From an uncultured Clostridium sp. (GTDB lineage Bacteria > Bacillota > Clostridia > Lachnospirales > Lachnospiraceae), in NCBI GenBank assembly GCA_900547035.1, contig URFM01000011.1, positions 1 to 64,000 on the forward strand: a stretch of 64,000 bases of DNA, given 5' to 3'. A program made the position numbers and the translations under genes. Shown piece after piece: positions 11,883-42,044 of this stretch. The notes under the pieces are model-generated. The model did no database searches. It had not been told where the DNA came from and saw only the letters and a list, made by a program, of their open reading frames with translations. Each line of letters begins with the position of its first letter. Within the stretch, counting starts at the first letter, position 1.

Positions 11883-11986
11883 TTACCGCGTTTCCTTTCC
11901 TGCATAATACGAACAGGGGCGCCGAACAGCCTTTTGCTGTCTGTCCTCGCCCCCGGCATCGTCCCGATTGATAACTATTAATTATT

Positions 11987-12042
11987 CAGGACGGCACATC
12001 TTCTTATCCGGCCAAGGCCGGACAAGAAGATGTGCCGTCCTG
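11987..12042. repeat. Minimal form of the GGACGGC palindromic repeat
   Basis: Two 27-nt arms beginning CAGGACGGCACATCTTCTT pair around an AA loop with one G-T wobble. The outer part (CAGGACGGC) and the CTTCTT-TCCGGCC hairpin are shared with the long elements at 36722 and 41841, but the other two hairpins of those elements are missing. A second small GC hairpin (GGGGCG...CGCCCC) lies nearby at 11916-11953. Confidence 0.85.
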
Positions 12043-32279: not shown

Positions 32280-33621
32280 ATCGAGTAGGAGGCGGTGATT
32301 AGCCGCCGTCCTCTCACACCACCGTGCGTACCGTTCGGTACACGGCGGTTTCAATAGTTGACATGCAGTGACTGATAGGCTGCGGCTATGTCATAAAAGC
32401 CCCAGTTTATCAGTCTTTCTTTACTTAATGCCCAGTTGACCGCCTTGTTTCCGGCATTGAACCAGTATCCTTTGCGGTCGTAGGCTATTGTTGCCGCATA
32501 ATGGCTGTTCACTCCCAGTCCGATTAGTTTTCTCTTCCTTGTTCTGGGCAGTTTCCATTATTTCCAGATACACATCCGTATCCGCCGGTACAGCCATCAC
32601 AGGTTCAGCAGTATCGTATGGTTCATCGTGTCAAAGTATTTCGATAGGTCCAGGACCACCGCCCTCGTATATCCCTGTCCGATATACTCTTTTATCTTTA
32701 AAATGGCGTCTTTGGCTCCCCGGCCCGGACGATAACCAAAGCTGTCCTCCGAGAACAGAGGTTCATAGATTGGTATCAGCTGCTGGGCCATTGCCTGTTG
32801 GATGATACGGTCAATGACGGTAGGGATACCAAGCTTTCTTATCCCTCCGTCCGGCTTCGGAATCTCCACCCGCCTGACCGGTGAAGGGGTATATTTTCCC
32901 TTCCGGATTCTCTCTACCAGTCCGTGGTTGTTCTCCCTCAGCCATGGCAGTGCCTCTTCGATGGTCATCCCATCGACTCCAGGCGCTCCCTTGTTTGCCT
33001 TCACTCTCTTGTAAGCCCTGTTCAGGTTGTCCTTATCCAGTATCCTGCCTAAGAGGTCCGGCTCCGCACTGTCCCTTTCCTTCCATATCCGGTTGAATGA
33101 GCGGTGCGCTCTCACATTCCCTTTGCGTTCCGCGCTATCTCTTTGCGAGCAGCTTTCTCTGTTTTCCGTACCCATCTGCTCATTCCTCCTTTCCCAGTCG
33201 TACTAAAGACTCCTATTGATTCAGCCCTTCACTGAAAAAAACTCAGCTACTACGGCCTCTGCTGACTTCTGTATGTTCAGCGTTACCTCACGATAACGGT
33301 TACCCCTTTCGGAGCGTTCCATACAGACCTCCCTGGGTACCACACGTTTCTTTTCCTCCATCCATCTGCCGCATTTACTGCACATGATTCCGTGTAGTTA
33401 TCGGGCTTCATCTTGAGTAGCAGACTTACCCTCATGCACAGCCTTCTATACGATTTCTGTTCGTCAGACCAGAGGTTTGCCCGTGGGTTCGTAGGTTCCC
33501 CACATCCGGCTTCCTTCAGATTTGCAGTCACCTGCAACACCCTTGCCTTTGGCTGTATCCTTCCCACTACCGGGCGGATTCGGGACTTGCACCCGTTAGA
33601 AACGTGCGCCGCCAGGCGCAC
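32280..33621 (-). mobile_element. Decayed group II intron, class C-like, inserted after the metQ terminator
   Basis: The 5' end is GTGCGCC (33621-33615), the group II boundary. A domain V-like hairpin lies at 32318-32349 (ACCGCCGTG...GCACGGTGGT), followed by a domain VI-like segment ending ...CCTACTCGA near 32280. The element starts 6 nt beyond the T-run of the metQ terminator, the insertion habit of class C introns. The encoded protein is deleted and has stops, so mobility is lost. The 1342 bp is short for an ORF-bearing intron. Confidence 0.85.
32351..33175 (-). pseudogene. Group II intron reverse transcriptase/maturase, internally deleted
   Basis: The first 192 codons encode the reverse-transcriptase start: NKGAPGVDGMTIEEALPW, RRVEIPKPDGGIRKLGIPTVIDRIIQQA, FSEDSFGYRPGRGAKDAI and AVVLDLSKYFDTMNHTILLNL. 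A TGA follows at 32597, and the same frame resumes as WLYRRIRMCIWK, a TAA, then WKLPRTRKRKLIGLGVNSHYA, with a maturase-like tail ending SLHVNY. The YADD catalytic region and thumb are missing, so about 200 or more codons were deleted. GGAGG precedes ATG 33175. Confidence 0.88.
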
Positions 33622-33708: not shown

Positions 33709-34632
33709 TTAGAACAGAGCCACGACAGCTCCATTATATGTGGCGTCGATAAATTCCTTCACCTCATCGCTGCAAAGAGCCTGAACCAGCGCCTGAATCT
33801 TCTCGCTGTTCTCATCTCCGGACCTTACCGCCACTACATTGGCGTAGGTCTGCGCAGCAAGAGAGTCAGAAGTTTCCGCTGCCAGAGCCTCGGATACGTT
33901 CAGTCCCGCCTCCAGGGCATAATTTCCGTTAATGATGGCAATATCGCAGTCGTCCATGGTTCTGGGGATCATGGCCGCTTCCATCTCAACAATTTCAAGA
34001 TTTTTAGGATTCTCCTCAATATCGTTGGGCGTAGCTTCAAGTCCTGCCCCTTCCTTCAAAGTCAGCAGTCCCTGGTCCTGGAGCAGCAGAAGGGCTCTTG
34101 CCTCATTTGTGATATCATTGGGGACGAATACGGTAGCTCCGTCGGGAAGCTGGGACAGGTCCGTGGTCTTTCCCGCATAGATGCCAAAGGGCTCATAGTG
34201 AATCTCCCCGGCGCTTACCAGGTCGGTTCCGTTCTGCTCATTGTAGGATTCCAGGTACTGGATGTGCTGGAAGTAGTTGGCGTCCAGTTCTCCCTCCTCC
34301 AGGGCACGGTTGGGAAGCACATAGTCCGTAAATTCCTGAATCTGCAGGTCGTATCCTTGTTCTGCCAGAATGGGTTTTACTACCTCCAGAATCTCTGCGT
34401 GGGGTGCGGCAGTGGCACCTACAACCAGAGTCTCCAGTTCGCCGGAAGCAGCGGATTCTGCCTCGGAAACCTCGCTCTCAGCTCCTGCTGCCTCGGTCTC
34501 CTCTCCCGCAGCCTCAGTGCCCTCCATTGAGGCAGCCGTGGTCTGCTCCTGTGAGTTTCCGGAGCATCCTGCCAGTGCAGCGCAGGCTAAAGCCGCAGCC
34601 AGGGCAATGGTTCCCAGATTTTTCTTTTTCAT
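33709..34632 (-). CDS. metQ: Methionine ABC transporter substrate-binding lipoprotein
   Basis: A 307-residue NlpA/MetQ-family lipoprotein. Signal and lipobox are clear (ALACAALAGCS, Cys23), followed by an acidic Ser/Glu/Ala linker. The binding domain starts LVVGATAAPHAEIL and includes DYVLPNRALEEGELDANYFQHIQYLE, GEIHYEPFGIYAGKTTDLSQLPDGA and the late DDCDIAIINGNYALEAGL, all family signatures for binding L- or D-methionine. ATG 34632 has GAGGAGG upstream. It follows metN and metI; a 16-bp GC palindrome lies in the metI-metQ gap. Confidence 0.95.
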   Translation of the reverse strand: MKKKNLGTIALAAALACAALAGCSGNSQEQTTAASMEGTEAAGEETEAAGAESEVSEAESAASGELETLVVGATAAPHAEILEVVKPILAEQGYDLQIQEFTDYVLPNRALEEGELDANYFQHIQYLESYNEQNGTDLVSAGEIHYEPFGIYAGKTTDLSQLPDGATVFVPNDITNEARALLLLQDQGLLTLKEGAGLEATPNDIEENPKNLEIVEMEAAMIPRTMDDCDIAIINGNYALEAGLNVSEALAAETSDSLAAQTYANVVAVRSGDENSEKIQALVQALCSDEVKEFIDATYNGAVVALF

Positions 34633-34717: not shown

Positions 34718-35383
34718 TCAGCGGATTCTCTTATCCGTTCCCTTGGACCAGTGCATAAATCCAATCTGAATCAGCTGGACAATAATCACCAGCAGCACTA
34801 CCGTGATCAGCATCATTTCTTCCTCATAGCGGTAGTAGCCATAACGGATGGCGATATCTCCCAATCCGCCGCCTCCGGCATAGCCGGCCATAGTGGAATA
34901 TCCAAGGATGGTGGTGATGGAAATGGCCGCTCCCACCAGCAGAGAGGGCTTAGCCTCCGGCAGCAATACCTTCCAGATAATCTGCATGGTTGAAGCTCCC
35001 ATAGACTTTGCCGCCTCGATCACCCCGGCGTTGACCTCCTTTAAGGAAGACTCCACCATACGGGCGATGTAGGGGGAAGCGGAGAGGACCAGCGGCACCA
35101 CAACCGCATTTGCGCCTGTCACCTTTCCCACAATCATCTTGGTCAGGGGCAGAATCATAATCAGCAAAATGATAAATGGAATGGACCGCAGCAGGTTAAT
35201 CACCAGACCCAATATCCGGTTAAAGGCGGGAACCGGCCGGATACCGTCCTTGTCCGTCACAATCAGAAGGATTCCCAGAGGAATTCCGATCAGATAGGAC
35301 AGGGCGGAGGATAAAGCCACCATGTAGAGGGTTTCAATAGTTCCATCTTTTAGCATTTCAATTGTAACCGCGTTCAGTTCCAT
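34718..35383 (-). CDS. metI: Methionine ABC transporter permease
   Basis: A 221-residue permease with five to six spans. VALSSALSYLIGIPLGILLIVTD near the start and EVNAGVIEAAKSMGASTMQIIWKVLLPEAKPSLL (about 133-166, the EAA loop contacting the ATPase) are MetI signatures, as is the later ITTILGYSTMAGYAGGGGLGDIAIRYGYYRY. It starts one base after metN ends. Partners are MetN (36412-35384) and MetQ. Confidence 0.95.
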   Translation of the reverse strand: MELNAVTIEMLKDGTIETLYMVALSSALSYLIGIPLGILLIVTDKDGIRPVPAFNRILGLVINLLRSIPFIILLIMILPLTKMIVGKVTGANAVVVPLVLSASPYIARMVESSLKEVNAGVIEAAKSMGASTMQIIWKVLLPEAKPSLLVGAAISITTILGYSTMAGYAGGGGLGDIAIRYGYYRYEEEMMLITVVLLVIIVQLIQIGFMHWSKGTDKRIR

Positions 35384-36412
35384 TTATCTCACCTCCTCAA
35401 AAGCTACTCCCGATGTTTTCAGGTAGTTGCGGACCCGGTTGGCGTCCACCTCATCCTCCGGAAGCTGAATCAGCATCTGGCCCATGGCCTTTCCCTCAAT
35501 ATCCCGGGTGTCAGCGTGCATGATGTTCACCGGCACCTTGCAGGCCAGAATCATATTGGCGATTACCGGCTCCGAGGACTCTCTCCCATCAAAGATGATG
35601 CGGATCTGTCCCGATTTTCCGAAATTGGCCCGCTGGGTATCTGCTTCGCCCAAAATCAATCTGCGTCCGATCTGGGACTTGGGTCCGGAGAAAATTTCCG
35701 ACACTTTTCCGAATTCCGCAATATGGCTCTGATCAATAATTGCTACCCGGTCGCAGATGGCCTCGATGACCGCCATCTCGTGGGTAATGACAATGACCGT
35801 AATTCCCATCTCCCGGTTAATCTGCTTTAACAGCGCCAGAATGGATTTTGTGGTATTTGGGTCCAGGGCGCTGGTGGCCTCGTCGCAGAGAAGCACCTTT
35901 GGATTGGTCGCCATTGCCCGGGCGATGGCAACCCTCTGCTTCTGACCTCCGGACAGCTGGGCCGGATAAGCCTTCACCCGTTCTTCCAGTCCCACCAGCT
36001 TCAAAAGCTCCAGGGCTCTCTTCTTCGCCTCAGCCTTGGAAACCCCCGCAATCTCCAGAGGGAAGCAGACATTCTGGAGAACATTTCTCTGCTCCAGAAG
36101 GTTGAACTGCTGAAAAATCATTCCCATAGACCGCCTTGCCAGACGCTTCTGTTTTTCTGTCATGGCCGACAGATTTTCTCCTTCAAAAAATACCCGTCCC
36201 GAAGTCGGCACTTCCAGATAGTTGATACAGCGCACCAGGGTACTCTTGCCCGCTCCGGAGAGGCCGATAATTCCAAAGATCTCTCCTTTAAAAATTTCCA
36301 GATTAATGTCATCCAGGGCAGTTACCAAACCATTGGCAGTTTTAAACTGCTTGCCCAGGCCTTCCAGCCGGATGATCGTCTCTCTGCCTTGTTCCTCCAT
36401 ACTCCCATCCAT
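35384..36412 (-). CDS. metN: Methionine ABC transporter ATPase
   Basis: A 342-residue ATPase: Walker A GLSGAGKST (about 53-61), Q-loop FQQFNLLEQRNVLQNV, signature LSGGQKQR, Walker B VLLCDEATSALDP, and H-loop VIVITHEM. The extra C-terminal NIL/ACT-like domain (about 260-342, with RIIFDGRESSEPVI) is the methionine-sensing domain that shuts down transport when cytoplasmic methionine is high. The start is uncertain: ATG 36412 abuts AAAGGA, and ATG 36400 is an alternative. First gene of metNIQ; leader region upstream. Confidence 0.95.
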   Translation of the reverse strand: MDGSMEEQGRETIIRLEGLGKQFKTANGLVTALDDINLEIFKGEIFGIIGLSGAGKSTLVRCINYLEVPTSGRVFFEGENLSAMTEKQKRLARRSMGMIFQQFNLLEQRNVLQNVCFPLEIAGVSKAEAKKRALELLKLVGLEERVKAYPAQLSGGQKQRVAIARAMATNPKVLLCDEATSALDPNTTKSILALLKQINREMGITVIVITHEMAVIEAICDRVAIIDQSHIAEFGKVSEIFSGPKSQIGRRLILGEADTQRANFGKSGQIRIIFDGRESSEPVIANMILACKVPVNIMHADTRDIEGKAMGQMLIQLPEDEVDANRVRNYLKTSGVAFEEVR

Positions 36413-36480: not shown

Positions 36481-36522
36481 AACAAAATAGGGCCGCATGT
36501 CTTGCTCAGACCTGCGACCCCT
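36481..36522 (-). terminator. Candidate attenuator hairpin between Met leader ORF and metN
   Basis: On the minus strand an AGGG..CGCA..GTCT arm pairs with AGAC..TGCG..CCCT across a GAGCA loop, and TATTTTGTT follows. It is 60 nt past the leader stop codon and 69 nt before metN. Downstream, TTAGCGCC, TTAACGCC and TTACGCG repeats (36435-36472) could be competing partners. A terminator here would make metNIQ expression conditional. Confidence 0.55.
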
Positions 36523-36582
36523 TATACCTTACGTAAAGCGACACCAATCAATTCTCAACAATCCATACAAAAGAAACTGCAT

Positions 36583-36675
36583 TCAGTTTTTGGCACACGG
36601 AAAAGAACGGCACATCAGCATGCACATGCCATTCATCATATCCATATTCATCTCCATGGCCTGAAACTGGTTCAT
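36583..36675 (-). CDS. Methionine-rich leader peptide of the metNIQ operon, 30 residues
   Basis: Reads MNQFQAMEMNMDMMNGMCML-MCRSFPCAKN with nine Met among 30 residues, seven of them between residues 9 and 21. CAGGAGG stands 7 nt before the ATG, which is a near-ideal translation start. It lies between a promoter (36701) and a terminator-like hairpin (36481-36522) ahead of metN. The arrangement is that of an amino-acid attenuator: ribosome stalling at Met codons when charged tRNA-Met is scarce would change the downstream fold. Whether the peptide itself has another role (Met/Cys-rich, possible metal binding) cannot be excluded. Confidence 0.7.
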   Translation of the reverse strand: MNQFQAMEMNMDMMNGMCMLMCRSFPCAKN

Positions 36676-36700
36676 GAATTTCCTCCTGTAATGGTTTTCT

Positions 36701-36730
36701 ATCATAGTGTATGACTAGGATTGACTGTAA
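36701..36730 (-). promoter_or_regulatory. Promoter of the Met leader-metNIQ transcript
   Basis: On the minus strand: TTACAG (36730-36725), 18-bp spacer, TATGAT (36706-36701). The -35 comes from the terminal bases of the long palindromic repeat at 36722. Confidence 0.5.
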
Positions 36731-36880
36731 CAGTTCAGGACGGCGGGGAAACGAGAGGAAGAGCAGACGTTAAGCTTGCTTATAAGCGTACTCTTCCTCC
36801 CGTTTTCACATCGGATGGACATCCGATGCTTCTTGTTCGGTCTTTGACCGGACAAGAAGATGAGCCGTCCTGAACAGTCA
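36722..36880. repeat. Long cruciform GGACGGC repeat element, copy in minus orientation
   Basis: Terminal arms TTCAGGACGGC and GCCGTCCTGAA enclose three hairpins: a long one with loop GCTTATAAGC, a CATCGGATG-GA-CATCCGATG hairpin, and CTTCTTGTTCGGT/ACCGGACAAGAAG. The same parts occur in reverse at 41841-41997. The long-stem arms differ between the copies (GAGGAAGAG here) but stay self-complementary. It lies between the metNIQ promoter and the dipeptidase gene. Confidence 0.9.
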
Positions 36881-36952
36881 CGATTTATCTTATCTAAGAA
36901 GATACACTACAATGAAAGGTTTGTCAAGTTCTTTATTTCTATTTTTCCAAAG

Positions 36953-38356
36953 TTAACTGCACAGCTCCACAATCACCTGTGCGAAAATCTTGGCGCTGGC
37001 AAGAAGCTCATCAATCACCGCAAATTCATCGGCTCCATGCATGTGGTTGTCCGTTCCCGGGAAAGCGGCGCCGAAGGCTACTCCGTGCTTCAGCCCGTGG
37101 ACATAAGTCCCGCCGCCGATGGCAAGGCAGCCTCCTTTCAGGCCGGTATACTCCTCGTAAACCCGGTTCAGTACCTTCACGAACTCAGAGTCCCCGTCCA
37201 CATGATGGGGCGGAATCATGGAATCGTTGCGCAGGGCAATGCCGTTCTCAGCCATCCGGTCTTTAATTACCTTCAGGGTGTTTTCCTCATTGGAGCAGAT
37301 GGGGCAGCGGCTGTCAAATACGCCTTCCAAATGCTGGTCGTCCACCGTCAGCATGCTGAAAGCCAAAGTCAAATCCCCGGAAAGTTCATCGGACCTGGAA
37401 ACCCCCAGAGCCTGTCCGCTGGTGTCTCCGTGAGGCATCAGCTTCTCCAGGGCTGCTGCCGCACGAACCTGCGGGCAGTCTGCCAGAGGCAGTCCCGCAA
37501 TCAGTTTCAGAAGGCCTGTCAGGGCATTTTTTCCTTCCTGAGGAGTGGATGCGTGGGCTCCCTCGCCCTGGGCCAGCACCAGGATTCCCTCCTGACGGAC
37601 GGAAAGAGCGAAATGGATTCCCGTCTCCTGCTCCACCTGACGCGCTTCCTTCTCGATCTCCTCGGCCTCCAGTCCCGCCAGAATGGCCTCCGCCTTTCCT
37701 GGAACTACATTGGCCTTAGTGCCGGAAGAAAAGCTTACCAGCTTAGGCAGTGCCTCCGAAGCCTCAAAGGAACTGTCAAAATGTCCCTCCAGGCGGCCTT
37801 TCTCAATATTGACTACCGGGAACTCACCGTCCGGTGAAAAGGTCATGGGGGCCTCTTTCTCCACATCGTAGTAATGTTCAATGTCAGAGCTGCCGCATTC
37901 CTCGTCCGTTCCCAGAATCAGACGCACATTTTTGGTCAGGGGAATCCCCAGATCCTTCACGCAGCGCATGGCGTAAAGGGCGGCTACCGCCGGCCCCTTG
38001 TCATCCGCCGTGCCTCTGCCGTAAAGCTTTCCATCCTTCTCCACCGGTTCAAAGGGCTCCGTCACCGTCCAGCCCTCTCCAGCCGGAACCACATCCAGAT
38101 GAGCCAGAATATCCAGCTGCGCCGGACCGTCATTCAGGTCCGCAGTTCCTACATAATTGTCGTAGTTGTTGACAGAAAAACCATACCGCTCCGCCATATC
38201 CAGAGCCGCATTCAGAGCCGCAAAGGCCCCTTCTCCGTAAGGTTTCCCGGCGCTGTAGGGCATTTTTTCACTGTTGATACGGCACAGGGCAGAAATATCC
38301 TCAATCATCTCCTGTCTGTGGCTGTCGATATAGGACTCAATTTTTTCTCGATACAT
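36953..38356 (-). CDS. M20-family dipeptidase (PepV/Sapep type)
   Basis: A 467-residue zinc/manganese dipeptidase. Metal-ligand motifs are LDILAHLDVVPAG (about 80-92), RGTADDKGPAVAALYA (bridging Asp) and LILGTDEECGSSD (catalytic Glu and Cys-adjacent region), with a late FAAAFPGTDNHMHGADEF metal His. The dimerisation lid occupies the middle third. It releases amino acids from dipeptides such as carnosine-like or Xaa-Met. It faces the metNIQ promoter across a repeat element. GGAGGAGAAG precedes the ATG. Confidence 0.92.
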   Translation of the reverse strand: MYREKIESYIDSHRQEMIEDISALCRINSEKMPYSAGKPYGEGAFAALNAALDMAERYGFSVNNYDNYVGTADLNDGPAQLDILAHLDVVPAGEGWTVTEPFEPVEKDGKLYGRGTADDKGPAVAALYAMRCVKDLGIPLTKNVRLILGTDEECGSSDIEHYYDVEKEAPMTFSPDGEFPVVNIEKGRLEGHFDSSFEASEALPKLVSFSSGTKANVVPGKAEAILAGLEAEEIEKEARQVEQETGIHFALSVRQEGILVLAQGEGAHASTPQEGKNALTGLLKLIAGLPLADCPQVRAAAALEKLMPHGDTSGQALGVSRSDELSGDLTLAFSMLTVDDQHLEGVFDSRCPICSNEENTLKVIKDRMAENGIALRNDSMIPPHHVDGDSEFVKVLNRVYEEYTGLKGGCLAIGGGTYVHGLKHGVAFGAAFPGTDNHMHGADEFAVIDELLASAKIFAQVIVELCS

Positions 38357-41840: not shown

Positions 41841-41997
41841 TAATATAACTGTTCAGGACGGCTCATCTTCTTGTCCGGCCAAGGCCGGACAAGAAGCCTC
41901 GGATGTCCATCCGATGTGAAAACGAGGGCAAAAGCATGCTTATAAGCAAGCTTAACGCCTGTTTTTGCCCTCGTTTTCCCGCCGTCCTGAACTATTA
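41841..41997. repeat. Long cruciform GGACGGC repeat element, copy in plus orientation
   Basis: TAAT...GTTCAGGACGGC and GCCGTCCTGAAC...ATTA ends enclose CTTCTTGTCCGGCC-AA-GGCCGGACAAGAAG, CGGATGTCCATCCG and a long stem CGAGGGCAAAA/TTTTTGCCCTCG with loop GCTTATAAGCAAGCTTAACG. It is the inverse of the copy at 36722; loop and ends are conserved while the long stem has changed on both sides. It fills the coaBC-coaX gap. Confidence 0.9.
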
Positions 41998-42044
41998 CCT
42001 CTACTATACCACACTATTTTTTCATTGGAAAGGAGTTCCCTGGA

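What the first reader, a model, noticed from the sequence alone, without database searches (positions are those of the whole stretch)
36481..36730. Methionine-codon leader ORF and attenuator ahead of metNIQ
A 30-codon ORF with nine Met codons and an excellent ribosome-binding site lies between a promoter and a terminator-like hairpin with a T-rich tail, all upstream of a methionine ABC operon. Ribosome-mediated attenuation by the amino acid concerned is classic for trp, his and leu leaders, whereas clostridial methionine genes are usually under S-box or T-box control, and I see neither here. This would be a leader-peptide mechanism for a transporter.
Basis: partly seen in the sequence, partly recalled or inferred. 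Interest (0 to 1): 0.8.

Follow-up and report, generated by a model that had tools for sequence, protein, structure and literature searches.

The report
Methionine leader-peptide attenuator before metNIQ
A short, methionine-packed reading frame followed by a transcription stop signal sits in front of a methionine-uptake operon and probably lets these gut bacteria switch the operon on when ribosomes run short of methionine; the switch type is classic, but its use for methionine in this bacterial group seems to be unreported.

Summary
On the minus strand a 30-codon ORF with 9 Met codons (36675-36583) has a strong Shine-Dalgarno and is followed by an intrinsic terminator (36521-36489), then metNIQ-like genes. 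It is not chance: 67 of the 80 metN loci kept carry the same Met-rich ORF. 67 of 68 leaders have a terminator after the stop, with compensatory changes in 11 of 13 stem pairs. In a Lachnospiraceae sample the peptide profile hits 17 of 397 genomes once each, 16 upstream of metN. Seven further Met-rich leaders that the profile does not reach precede metN elsewhere in the family, each with a terminator. Six of 13 loci lacking the leader carry a T-box with an AUG specifier. Competing helices (Met-codon run with post-stop segment; that segment with the terminator 5' arm) beat shuffles together in 35 of 65 leaders. In the window itself the second helix is not supported. Best reading: ribosome-mediated transcription attenuation answering to Met-tRNA supply. 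The kind is known; a candidate exists for Streptomyces metNIQ. No expression data were available.

The parts
36899..36927 (-). sigma-70-type promoter TTGACA-17-TATCTT of the leader transcript
   Evidence: TTGACA with a TAnnnT -10 in 64 of 67 relatives
36682..36687 (-). Shine-Dalgarno AGGAGG of the leader ORF
36583..36675 (-). leader ORF, 30 codons, 9 Met (MNQFQAMEMNMDMMNGMCMLMCRSFPCAKN)
   Evidence: same kind of ORF in 67 of 80 metN loci; gap runs in the aligned ORF are multiples of three
36647..36659 (-). region 1: first Met-codon run, pairs with region 2
   Evidence: columns 40-52 of A1; 82.0% of cells paired over 65 leaders; window p=0.035
36605..36634 (-). hairpin inside the ORF (codons N-G-M ... 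M-C-R), possible pause hairpin
   Evidence: 6 of 10 pairs with both-sided changes, 0 of 500 shuffles reach the covariation score; also in the RNAalifold consensus
36553..36576 (-). region 2: conserved post-stop segment (TTTCTTTTGTATGGATTGTTGAGA)
   Evidence: alignment; pairs with region 1 or region 3 in relatives
36503..36520 (-). region 3: 5' arm and loop of the terminator
   Evidence: in the window its pairing with region 2 is not better than shuffles
36489..36521 (-). intrinsic terminator hairpin (regions 3:4), tail 36488-36480 ATTTTGTTA
   Evidence: dG -21.4; 11 of 13 pairs with compensatory changes over 65 leaders
35384..36412 (-). metN-like ABC ATPase
   Evidence: best NCBIfam hit TIGR02314, 337.9 bits against cut-off 499.7
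34718..35383 (-). metI-like permease
   Evidence: best hit NF008049, 202.7 bits against 212
33709..34632 (-). metQ-like lipoprotein; start chosen by eye at MKKKNLG inside the 351-aa ORF listed from 34764
   Evidence: best hit TIGR00363, 186.9 bits against 228.85

Best explanation
A methionine-specific, ribosome-mediated transcription attenuator. RNA polymerase starts at the TTGACA promoter and a ribosome loads on the leader ORF. With enough Met-tRNA the ribosome clears the ORF and leaves, region 1 (the first Met codons) pairs with region 2 (just after the stop), region 3 stays free and folds with region 4 into the terminator, and metNIQ is not transcribed. When elongator Met-tRNA is short, the ribosome stalls on the first Met codons and covers region 1; region 2 then pairs with region 3, the terminator cannot form and metNIQ is expressed. 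Shown by sequence comparison: ORF, SD, promoter, terminator, their conservation and covariation, near-exclusive association with metN, and the two competing helices in 35 of 65 leaders. Inferred: stalling, methionine as signal, direction of the response. For the window's own lineage the 2:3 helix is not supported, so its antiterminator is unknown.
For: 67 of the 80 metN loci kept have the Met-rich ORF; Met is 28.0% of leader residues 2-40 over 68 leaders against 3.3% in seven window proteins. Gap runs inside the aligned ORF (columns 21-101) are all multiples of three, 159 of 159 counted per row, against 122 of 380 between stop and terminator; the 159 stem from few separate insertions or deletions. 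Terminator in 67 of 68 leaders, 11 of 13 pairs compensated, 0 of 500 shuffles. 1:2 helix 82.0% paired against 31.6-51.0% when slid; 2:3 helix 82.7% against 25.0-48.0%; both beat shuffles at p<=0.05 in 35 of 65. One strong profile hit per genome in 14 of 15 leader genomes; 16 of 17 hits in 397 Lachnospiraceae genomes lie before metN. In a sample by MetI, 12 of 58 metN loci reach >=6 Met in 14 aa upstream of metN, against 0.0004 of 2320 shuffles; seven of the 12 are outside the profile hits, and all seven have a terminator 20-60 nt after the stop. Of 13 leaderless loci among the 80, two are cut short and six of the other 11 have a T-box with AUG specifier; in the MetN tree five of these six, with L119, nest within leader-bearing lineages (the sixth, L074, was left out as incomplete). 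In 13 of 13 leader genomes tested the single SAM riboswitch stands by a metK-like gene.
Against: No expression data. In the window and L001 the 2:3 helix is no better than shuffles (p=0.87 and 0.865), and its modelled pairing does not change when a ribosome is placed (window 0.32, 0.32, 0.30). 13 of 65 leaders have neither helix at p<=0.05 and 17 only one; all ten aligned leaders with ATG in place of CAG lack 1:2. Region borders for that test were chosen after seeing the duplexes in the same sequences. Covariation is weak where it matters most: 1:2 has one pair with both-sided change (shuffled mean 2.5; score reached by 15 of 500), and the 2:3 score is reached by 314 of 500 shuffles. The stalled-ribosome model gains over 0.3 in 2:3 pairing in only 26 of 65. 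With a ribosome parked on the stop codon 2:3 pairing still averages 0.50, so termination needs ribosome release. Several third codon positions are nearly invariant (CAG 43/43, AAT 45/45, GGC 49/50), so part of the peptide conservation is RNA-level. 44 of 58 sampled metN loci of the family show neither >=6 Met in 14 aa nor a T-box above cut-off. The importer's methionine specificity rests on best hits below cut-off.
Confidence: 0.85

Rival explanations
1. Nascent-peptide arrest: the Met/Cys-rich peptide stalls its own ribosome in response to free methionine or SAM (as TnaC does for tryptophan), and the stall steers the same terminator.
For: Peptide positions beyond Met are conserved (the Cys of column 28, C22 of the window, in 63 of 63 distinct ORFs with both TGC and TGT).
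Against: Several conserved non-Met positions have conserved third bases, which points to RNA constraint. Some further leaders (L120, L129, L138, L148) share Met density but no evident peptide sequence (by eye). A stall in excess methionine would be expected to raise uptake when it is not needed, unless wired the other way.
Confidence: 0.07
2. The ORF makes a working Met/Cys-rich small protein (metal or redox binding, or a trans-acting leader peptide) and the terminator only limits the operon.
For: Met 28.0% and Cys 9.7% of residues 2-40.
Against: Near-exclusive association with metN, terminator downstream in 67 of 68, RNA-level third-base conservation, AUG T-boxes at the same operon in related lineages.
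Confidence: 0.04
3. An untranslated RNA switch whose AUG-rich look comes from base pairing alone.
For: Strong covariation of the hairpin inside the ORF.
Against: SD and start codon, gap lengths in multiples of three in the ORF, Met density kept in leaders outside the profile.
Confidence: 0.02

Closest known systems
Streptomyces lividans metL leader upstream of metNIQ (PMC8079986, Table 4; passages read)
   Same: Leader ORF with Met codons before metNIQ, proposed as methionine-dependent attenuator; it too has Cys beside Met
   Different: Actinobacteria; 29 aa with two Met after the start; leaderless start; authors found no typical Rho-independent terminator; no sequence comparison with the present leader was run
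Classical ribosome-mediated attenuators (trp, his, leu; recalled) and those in Firmicutes: histidine leader before hisS/hisZ in bacilli (PMC2965389, passages) and the leucine-rich attenuator of S. aureus ilv (PMC5794164, abstract)
   Same: Short ORF rich in the control codon, terminator, related operon; competing helices in the classical ones (recalled)
   Different: Control amino acid is methionine, which also starts proteins; operon is a transporter; region 2 lies after the stop codon in most aligned leaders here
Met T-box leaders: S. aureus met (PMC3771891, abstract and passages), Lactococcus lactis met transporter (PMC7058034, abstract and passages)
   Same: Methionine genes read out by tRNA-Met charging; a T-box with AUG specifier stands at the same operon in related lineages
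   Different: T-box binds uncharged tRNA directly, and the S. aureus one prefers initiator tRNA; a leader ORF can only read elongator tRNA-Met at internal codons
SAM (S-box) riboswitch RF00162
   Same: Controls methionine-related genes; one per genome in 13 of 13 leader genomes tested
   Different: Not found in this leader

Membership tests
ribosome-mediated transcription attenuator | short translated ORF with SD between promoter and first gene | tested here: met
   (translation inferred from SD and gap phase)
ribosome-mediated transcription attenuator | control codons of the amino acid handled by the operon | tested here: met
   9 Met of 30; 28.0% Met over 68 leaders; the operon's methionine specificity rests on best-hit naming
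ribosome-mediated transcription attenuator | intrinsic terminator between ORF and first gene | tested here: met
   67 of 68, covariation
ribosome-mediated transcription attenuator | mutually exclusive 1:2 and 2:3 helices | tested here: inconclusive
   both at p<=0.05 in 35 of 65 leaders; in the window 1:2 p=0.035, 2:3 p=0.87
ribosome-mediated transcription attenuator | readthrough rises when the amino acid is short | not testable with these tools
   needs expression data
T-box riboswitch (RF00230) | T-box fold in the leader | tested here: not met
   no match in the window leader
SAM riboswitch (RF00162) | SAM aptamer in the leader | tested here: not met
   no match in the window leader
MetNIQ methionine importer | NCBIfam curated score | tested here: inconclusive
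   best hits MetN, MetI, MetQ, all below cut-off
Streptomyces metL leader | homology of leader sequence | not tested
   peptide seen in PMC8079986 only; no alignment run

The most novel reading that the evidence does not exclude
The leader is a two-amino-acid sulphur sensor: ribosomes stall at Met codons and also at the Cys codons that recur beside them, so uptake answers to both Met-tRNA and Cys-tRNA. Cys is 9.7% of residues 2-40 in 68 leaders and 10.3% in seven further ones (L115, L120, L127, L129, L135, L138, L148), against 1.4% in seven window proteins; part of this may come from the hairpin in the ORF, whose arm includes the conserved M-C pair. The same operon is read by this elongator-reading leader in some lineages and by an AUG T-box, which may read initiator tRNA, in related ones, so the two readers of methionine supply can be compared at one operon.
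Probability: 0.25. Interest if true: 0.65.

Novelty: new member of a known kind. Interest (0 to 1): 0.55.

Why it matters
Methionine genes of Firmicutes are mostly reported under S-box or T-box control; this would add leader-peptide control for the methionine importer of a subset of gut Lachnospiraceae (Enterocloster, Hungatella and Lacrimispora relatives). Methionine is the amino acid whose shortage should also slow initiation on the leader itself, so the system tests whether elongator and initiator tRNA-Met charging part ways in starvation. The presence of an AUG T-box at the orthologous operon in related lineages gives a natural comparison. It also supplies a covarying RNA element for annotation; no Rfam family matched it in the window.

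Tried and rejected
Rfam search of the leader found no riboswitch. A -1 frameshift at a slippery A-run before the stop was considered: a heptamer is in phase in 24 of 68 leaders and the -1 frame is not consistently open, so dropped. dN/dS was not computed because several third codon positions are nearly fixed. The promoter/terminator scan did not list the terminator; the fold-based search found it. For L053 the automatic pick is a hairpin 195 nt after the stop (counted among the 67); the homologous one was taken by eye for A1. L058 got no automatic call but has a hairpin with TTTT by eye. Leaders L069 and L070 (upstream cut) and L043 (duplicate) were left out of A1: 65 of 68 rows. An alternative antiterminator for the window lineage was sought: only L002 gives a strong one (-21.1 kcal/mol, inside the ORF); window best is -13.9; left open. 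Of the metI sample, three loci with 4 Met in 14 aa (L118, L127, L149) were not counted as leaders (4 or more is reached by 3.3% of shuffles). Literature: nine full-text searches of the open PMC library; among the rows listed (several lists were capped) I found the Streptomyces metL candidate and no report of a methionine leader peptide in Firmicutes; subscription papers are not covered.

Full report
What is there. The minus strand of the window carries, in order, a consensus-like promoter (36927-36899), a palindromic repeat of about 150 bp, a Shine-Dalgarno and a 30-codon ORF with nine Met codons (36675-36583), a segment of 61 nt, an intrinsic terminator (36521-36489, dG -21.4) with tail ATTTTGTTA, and then genes whose best NCBIfam hits are MetN, MetI and MetQ, all below the curated cut-offs. 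The ORF stands alone among the 800 start-to-stop stretches of 20-60 aa in the script (7 Met in 14 residues; next best 4). Rfam finds no riboswitch in the leader.

Conservation. 67 of the 80 have a Met-rich ORF upstream of metN. Of the other 13, two are cut short by the contig end (L051, L068), six have a T-box (L056, L060, L066, L074, L075, L079) and five have neither (L005, L006, L018, L057, L067). The consensus of 29 chosen peptides is MxxxxxMQMNMxMMNGMxMMCRMFxCxKNx. In the alignment A1 of 65 leaders all 159 gap runs within ORF columns 21-101 are multiples of three, against 122 of 380 between stop and terminator. Runs are counted per row, so the 159 stem from few separate events; with the SD this supports translation. 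TTGACA with a TAnnnT box 17-18 nt on stands upstream in 64 of 67 relatives (L027 has a weaker site, L069 and L070 are cut). Terminators lie 19-82 nt after the stop, apart from the L053 pick at 195.

RNA-level constraint. Several third codon positions are nearly fixed: Gln CAG 43 of 43, Asn AAT 45 of 45, Gly GGC 49 of 50, Asn AAC 31 of 33 at their columns among 63 distinct ORFs; others vary (Cys column 28: TGC 49, TGT 14). Four helices were tested. The terminator has 91.9% of cells paired and both-sided changes in 11 of 13 pairs. A hairpin inside the ORF has 84.4% and both-sided changes in 6 of 10 pairs. For both, none of 500 shuffles reaches the covariation score, and both form the RNAalifold consensus. 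The 1:2 helix (first Met codons with the post-stop segment) has 82.0% of cells paired against 31.6-51.0% when slid, one pair with both-sided change (shuffled mean 2.5), score reached by 15 of 500 shuffles. The 2:3 helix (post-stop segment with terminator 5' arm) has 82.7% against 25.0-48.0%, 0 of 500 shuffles as well paired, six pairs with both-sided change, but its covariation score is reached by 314 of 500 shuffles. A region that must pair with two partners is expected to vary little, which is my reading of the weak covariation.

Per leader, against 200 shuffles of region 2, both helices reach p<=0.05 in 35 of 65, only one in 17 and neither in 13; 1:2 reaches p<=0.01 in 33 and 2:3 in 28. The regions were set after seeing the duplexes, and the leaders are related, so these counts are not independent. 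Window and L001: 1:2 p 0.035 and 0.020, 2:3 p 0.87 and 0.865; L002 p 0.060 and 0.655. All ten aligned leaders with ATG in place of CAG lack 1:2, and two of them have 2:3. A crude model of a ribosome at the second control Met raises 2:3 pairing by more than 0.3 in 26 of 65; 2:3 exceeds 0.5 in 33 of 65 when stalled and 14 of 65 without ribosome; 1:2 exceeds 0.5 in 30 of 65 without ribosome; the window stays near 0.32. With the ribosome on the stop codon 2:3 averages 0.50, so termination in good supply seems to need ribosome release rather than masking. Stall positions were also scanned codon by codon with mixed results. An alternative antiterminator in the window lineage was sought and is clear only in L002.

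Distribution. The peptide profile gives one strong hit per genome in 14 of 15 leader genomes (two further hits at E 0.18 and 0.85 do not lie by metN). In 397 genomes of the family, 17 have a hit at E<=0.01, of which 16 lie upstream of metN and one (L108, E 0.0038) does not. In 391 genomes of the class only the starting genome has a hit. A sample by MetI gave hits in 64 of 120 family genomes; 59 loci were fetched and the 58 with metN examined. Twelve of 58 have at least 6 Met in 14 residues upstream of metN, against 0.0004 of 2320 shuffles. Five of the 12 (L109-L113) are of the main type. The other seven (L115, L120, L122, L129, L135, L138, L148) come from genomes not among the profile hits. 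By eye L115 resembles the L072/L073 leaders, and L122 and L135 keep parts of the main motif, while L120, L129, L138 and L148 share only Met density. Each of the seven has a hairpin and T-run 20-60 nt after the stop. Rfam T-boxes above cut-off (93 bits, so weaker ones may be missed) stand at two of the 58 (L119, L134); a T-box-like motif lies at L159. 44 of 58 have neither, so other controls exist.

Exchange with T-boxes. All six T-boxes before metN in the first set read GAAC-AUG-G at the specifier position, placed by the Rfam alignment of one of them. In a quick MetN tree of 127 rows, five of these six (L074 left out) with L119 group together (support 84) beside leader-bearing Hungatella relatives within a starred clade of 17 rows: 10 leader, 6 T-box, 1 other. 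In 13 of 13 leader genomes the single SAM riboswitch adjoins an ORF that I recognise from memory as MetK by its GHPDK motif (not tested against a family library). So these bacteria have S-box control elsewhere and a different device at the importer.

Mechanism. I commit to ribosome-mediated transcription attenuation with Met codons as sensor (0.85). Shown: parts, conservation, covariation of terminator and ORF hairpin, association. Inferred: stalling, signal, direction. The ORF-internal hairpin may act as a pause site; this is inference. Methionine is special because starvation should also reduce initiation on the leader; the device works best if elongator tRNA-Met empties first. The S. aureus Met T-box prefers initiator tRNA (PMC3771891, abstract and passages), so the leader/T-box exchange may swap which tRNA is read.

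Known or new. The mechanism is textbook (recalled). A methionine leader before metNIQ has been proposed for Streptomyces lividans (PMC8079986, passages), without a clear terminator. Leader-peptide attenuators are described in Firmicutes for His (PMC2965389, passages) and Leu (PMC5794164, abstract). PMC1262725 (passages) reports no conserved RNA element before methionine operons in Actinobacteria. PMC4239095 (passages) names SAM riboswitches and Met T-boxes for Firmicutes, and the terms for attenuation and leader peptide do not occur in its main text. PMC8632094 (passages) lists uORF motifs, and the terms methionine and metN do not occur in its main text. Nine searches listed no report for Lachnospiraceae. 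I file it as a new member of a known kind.

Noticed in passing
window 36727-36878, second copy 41848-41998, part near 11985-12042: Repeat of about 150 bp, 88% identical between the two copies, that folds into a four-way cloverleaf (-86.2 kcal/mol, z -10.6). In the window it lies in the 5' UTR between promoter and leader; the near relative L001 lacks it there.
   Followed up: partly
window 32597-33537: Group II intron remains: two Rfam D1-D4 matches (33224-33302, 33341-33537) and a 192-aa reverse-transcriptase-like ORF (32597-33175) that looks too short to be whole (judged from its sequence, no family search).
   Followed up: no
L018 and L067, about 90-130 nt upstream of metN: Two metN loci without leader have a promoter-like TTGACA site followed by a shared AGGAATT motif in a partly palindromic stretch, resembling a CymR-type sulphur box (name recalled), and a terminator-like hairpin (by eye).
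   Followed up: no
window 36953-38356 and relatives: A PepV-like dipeptidase gene lies just upstream of the leader on the same strand, also in many relatives; in L057 metN follows it directly without leader.
   Followed up: no
end of the leader ORF in 24 of 68 leaders: A run of A in slippery phase (A_AAA_AAC or alike) just before the stop codon; absent from the window.
   Followed up: partly
L127 and L120, ORF end and terminator: Two distant Met-rich leaders share a VYFPAP stretch near the ORF end whose codons look complementary to the terminator 5' arm by eye, suggesting region 2 inside the ORF there.
   Followed up: no
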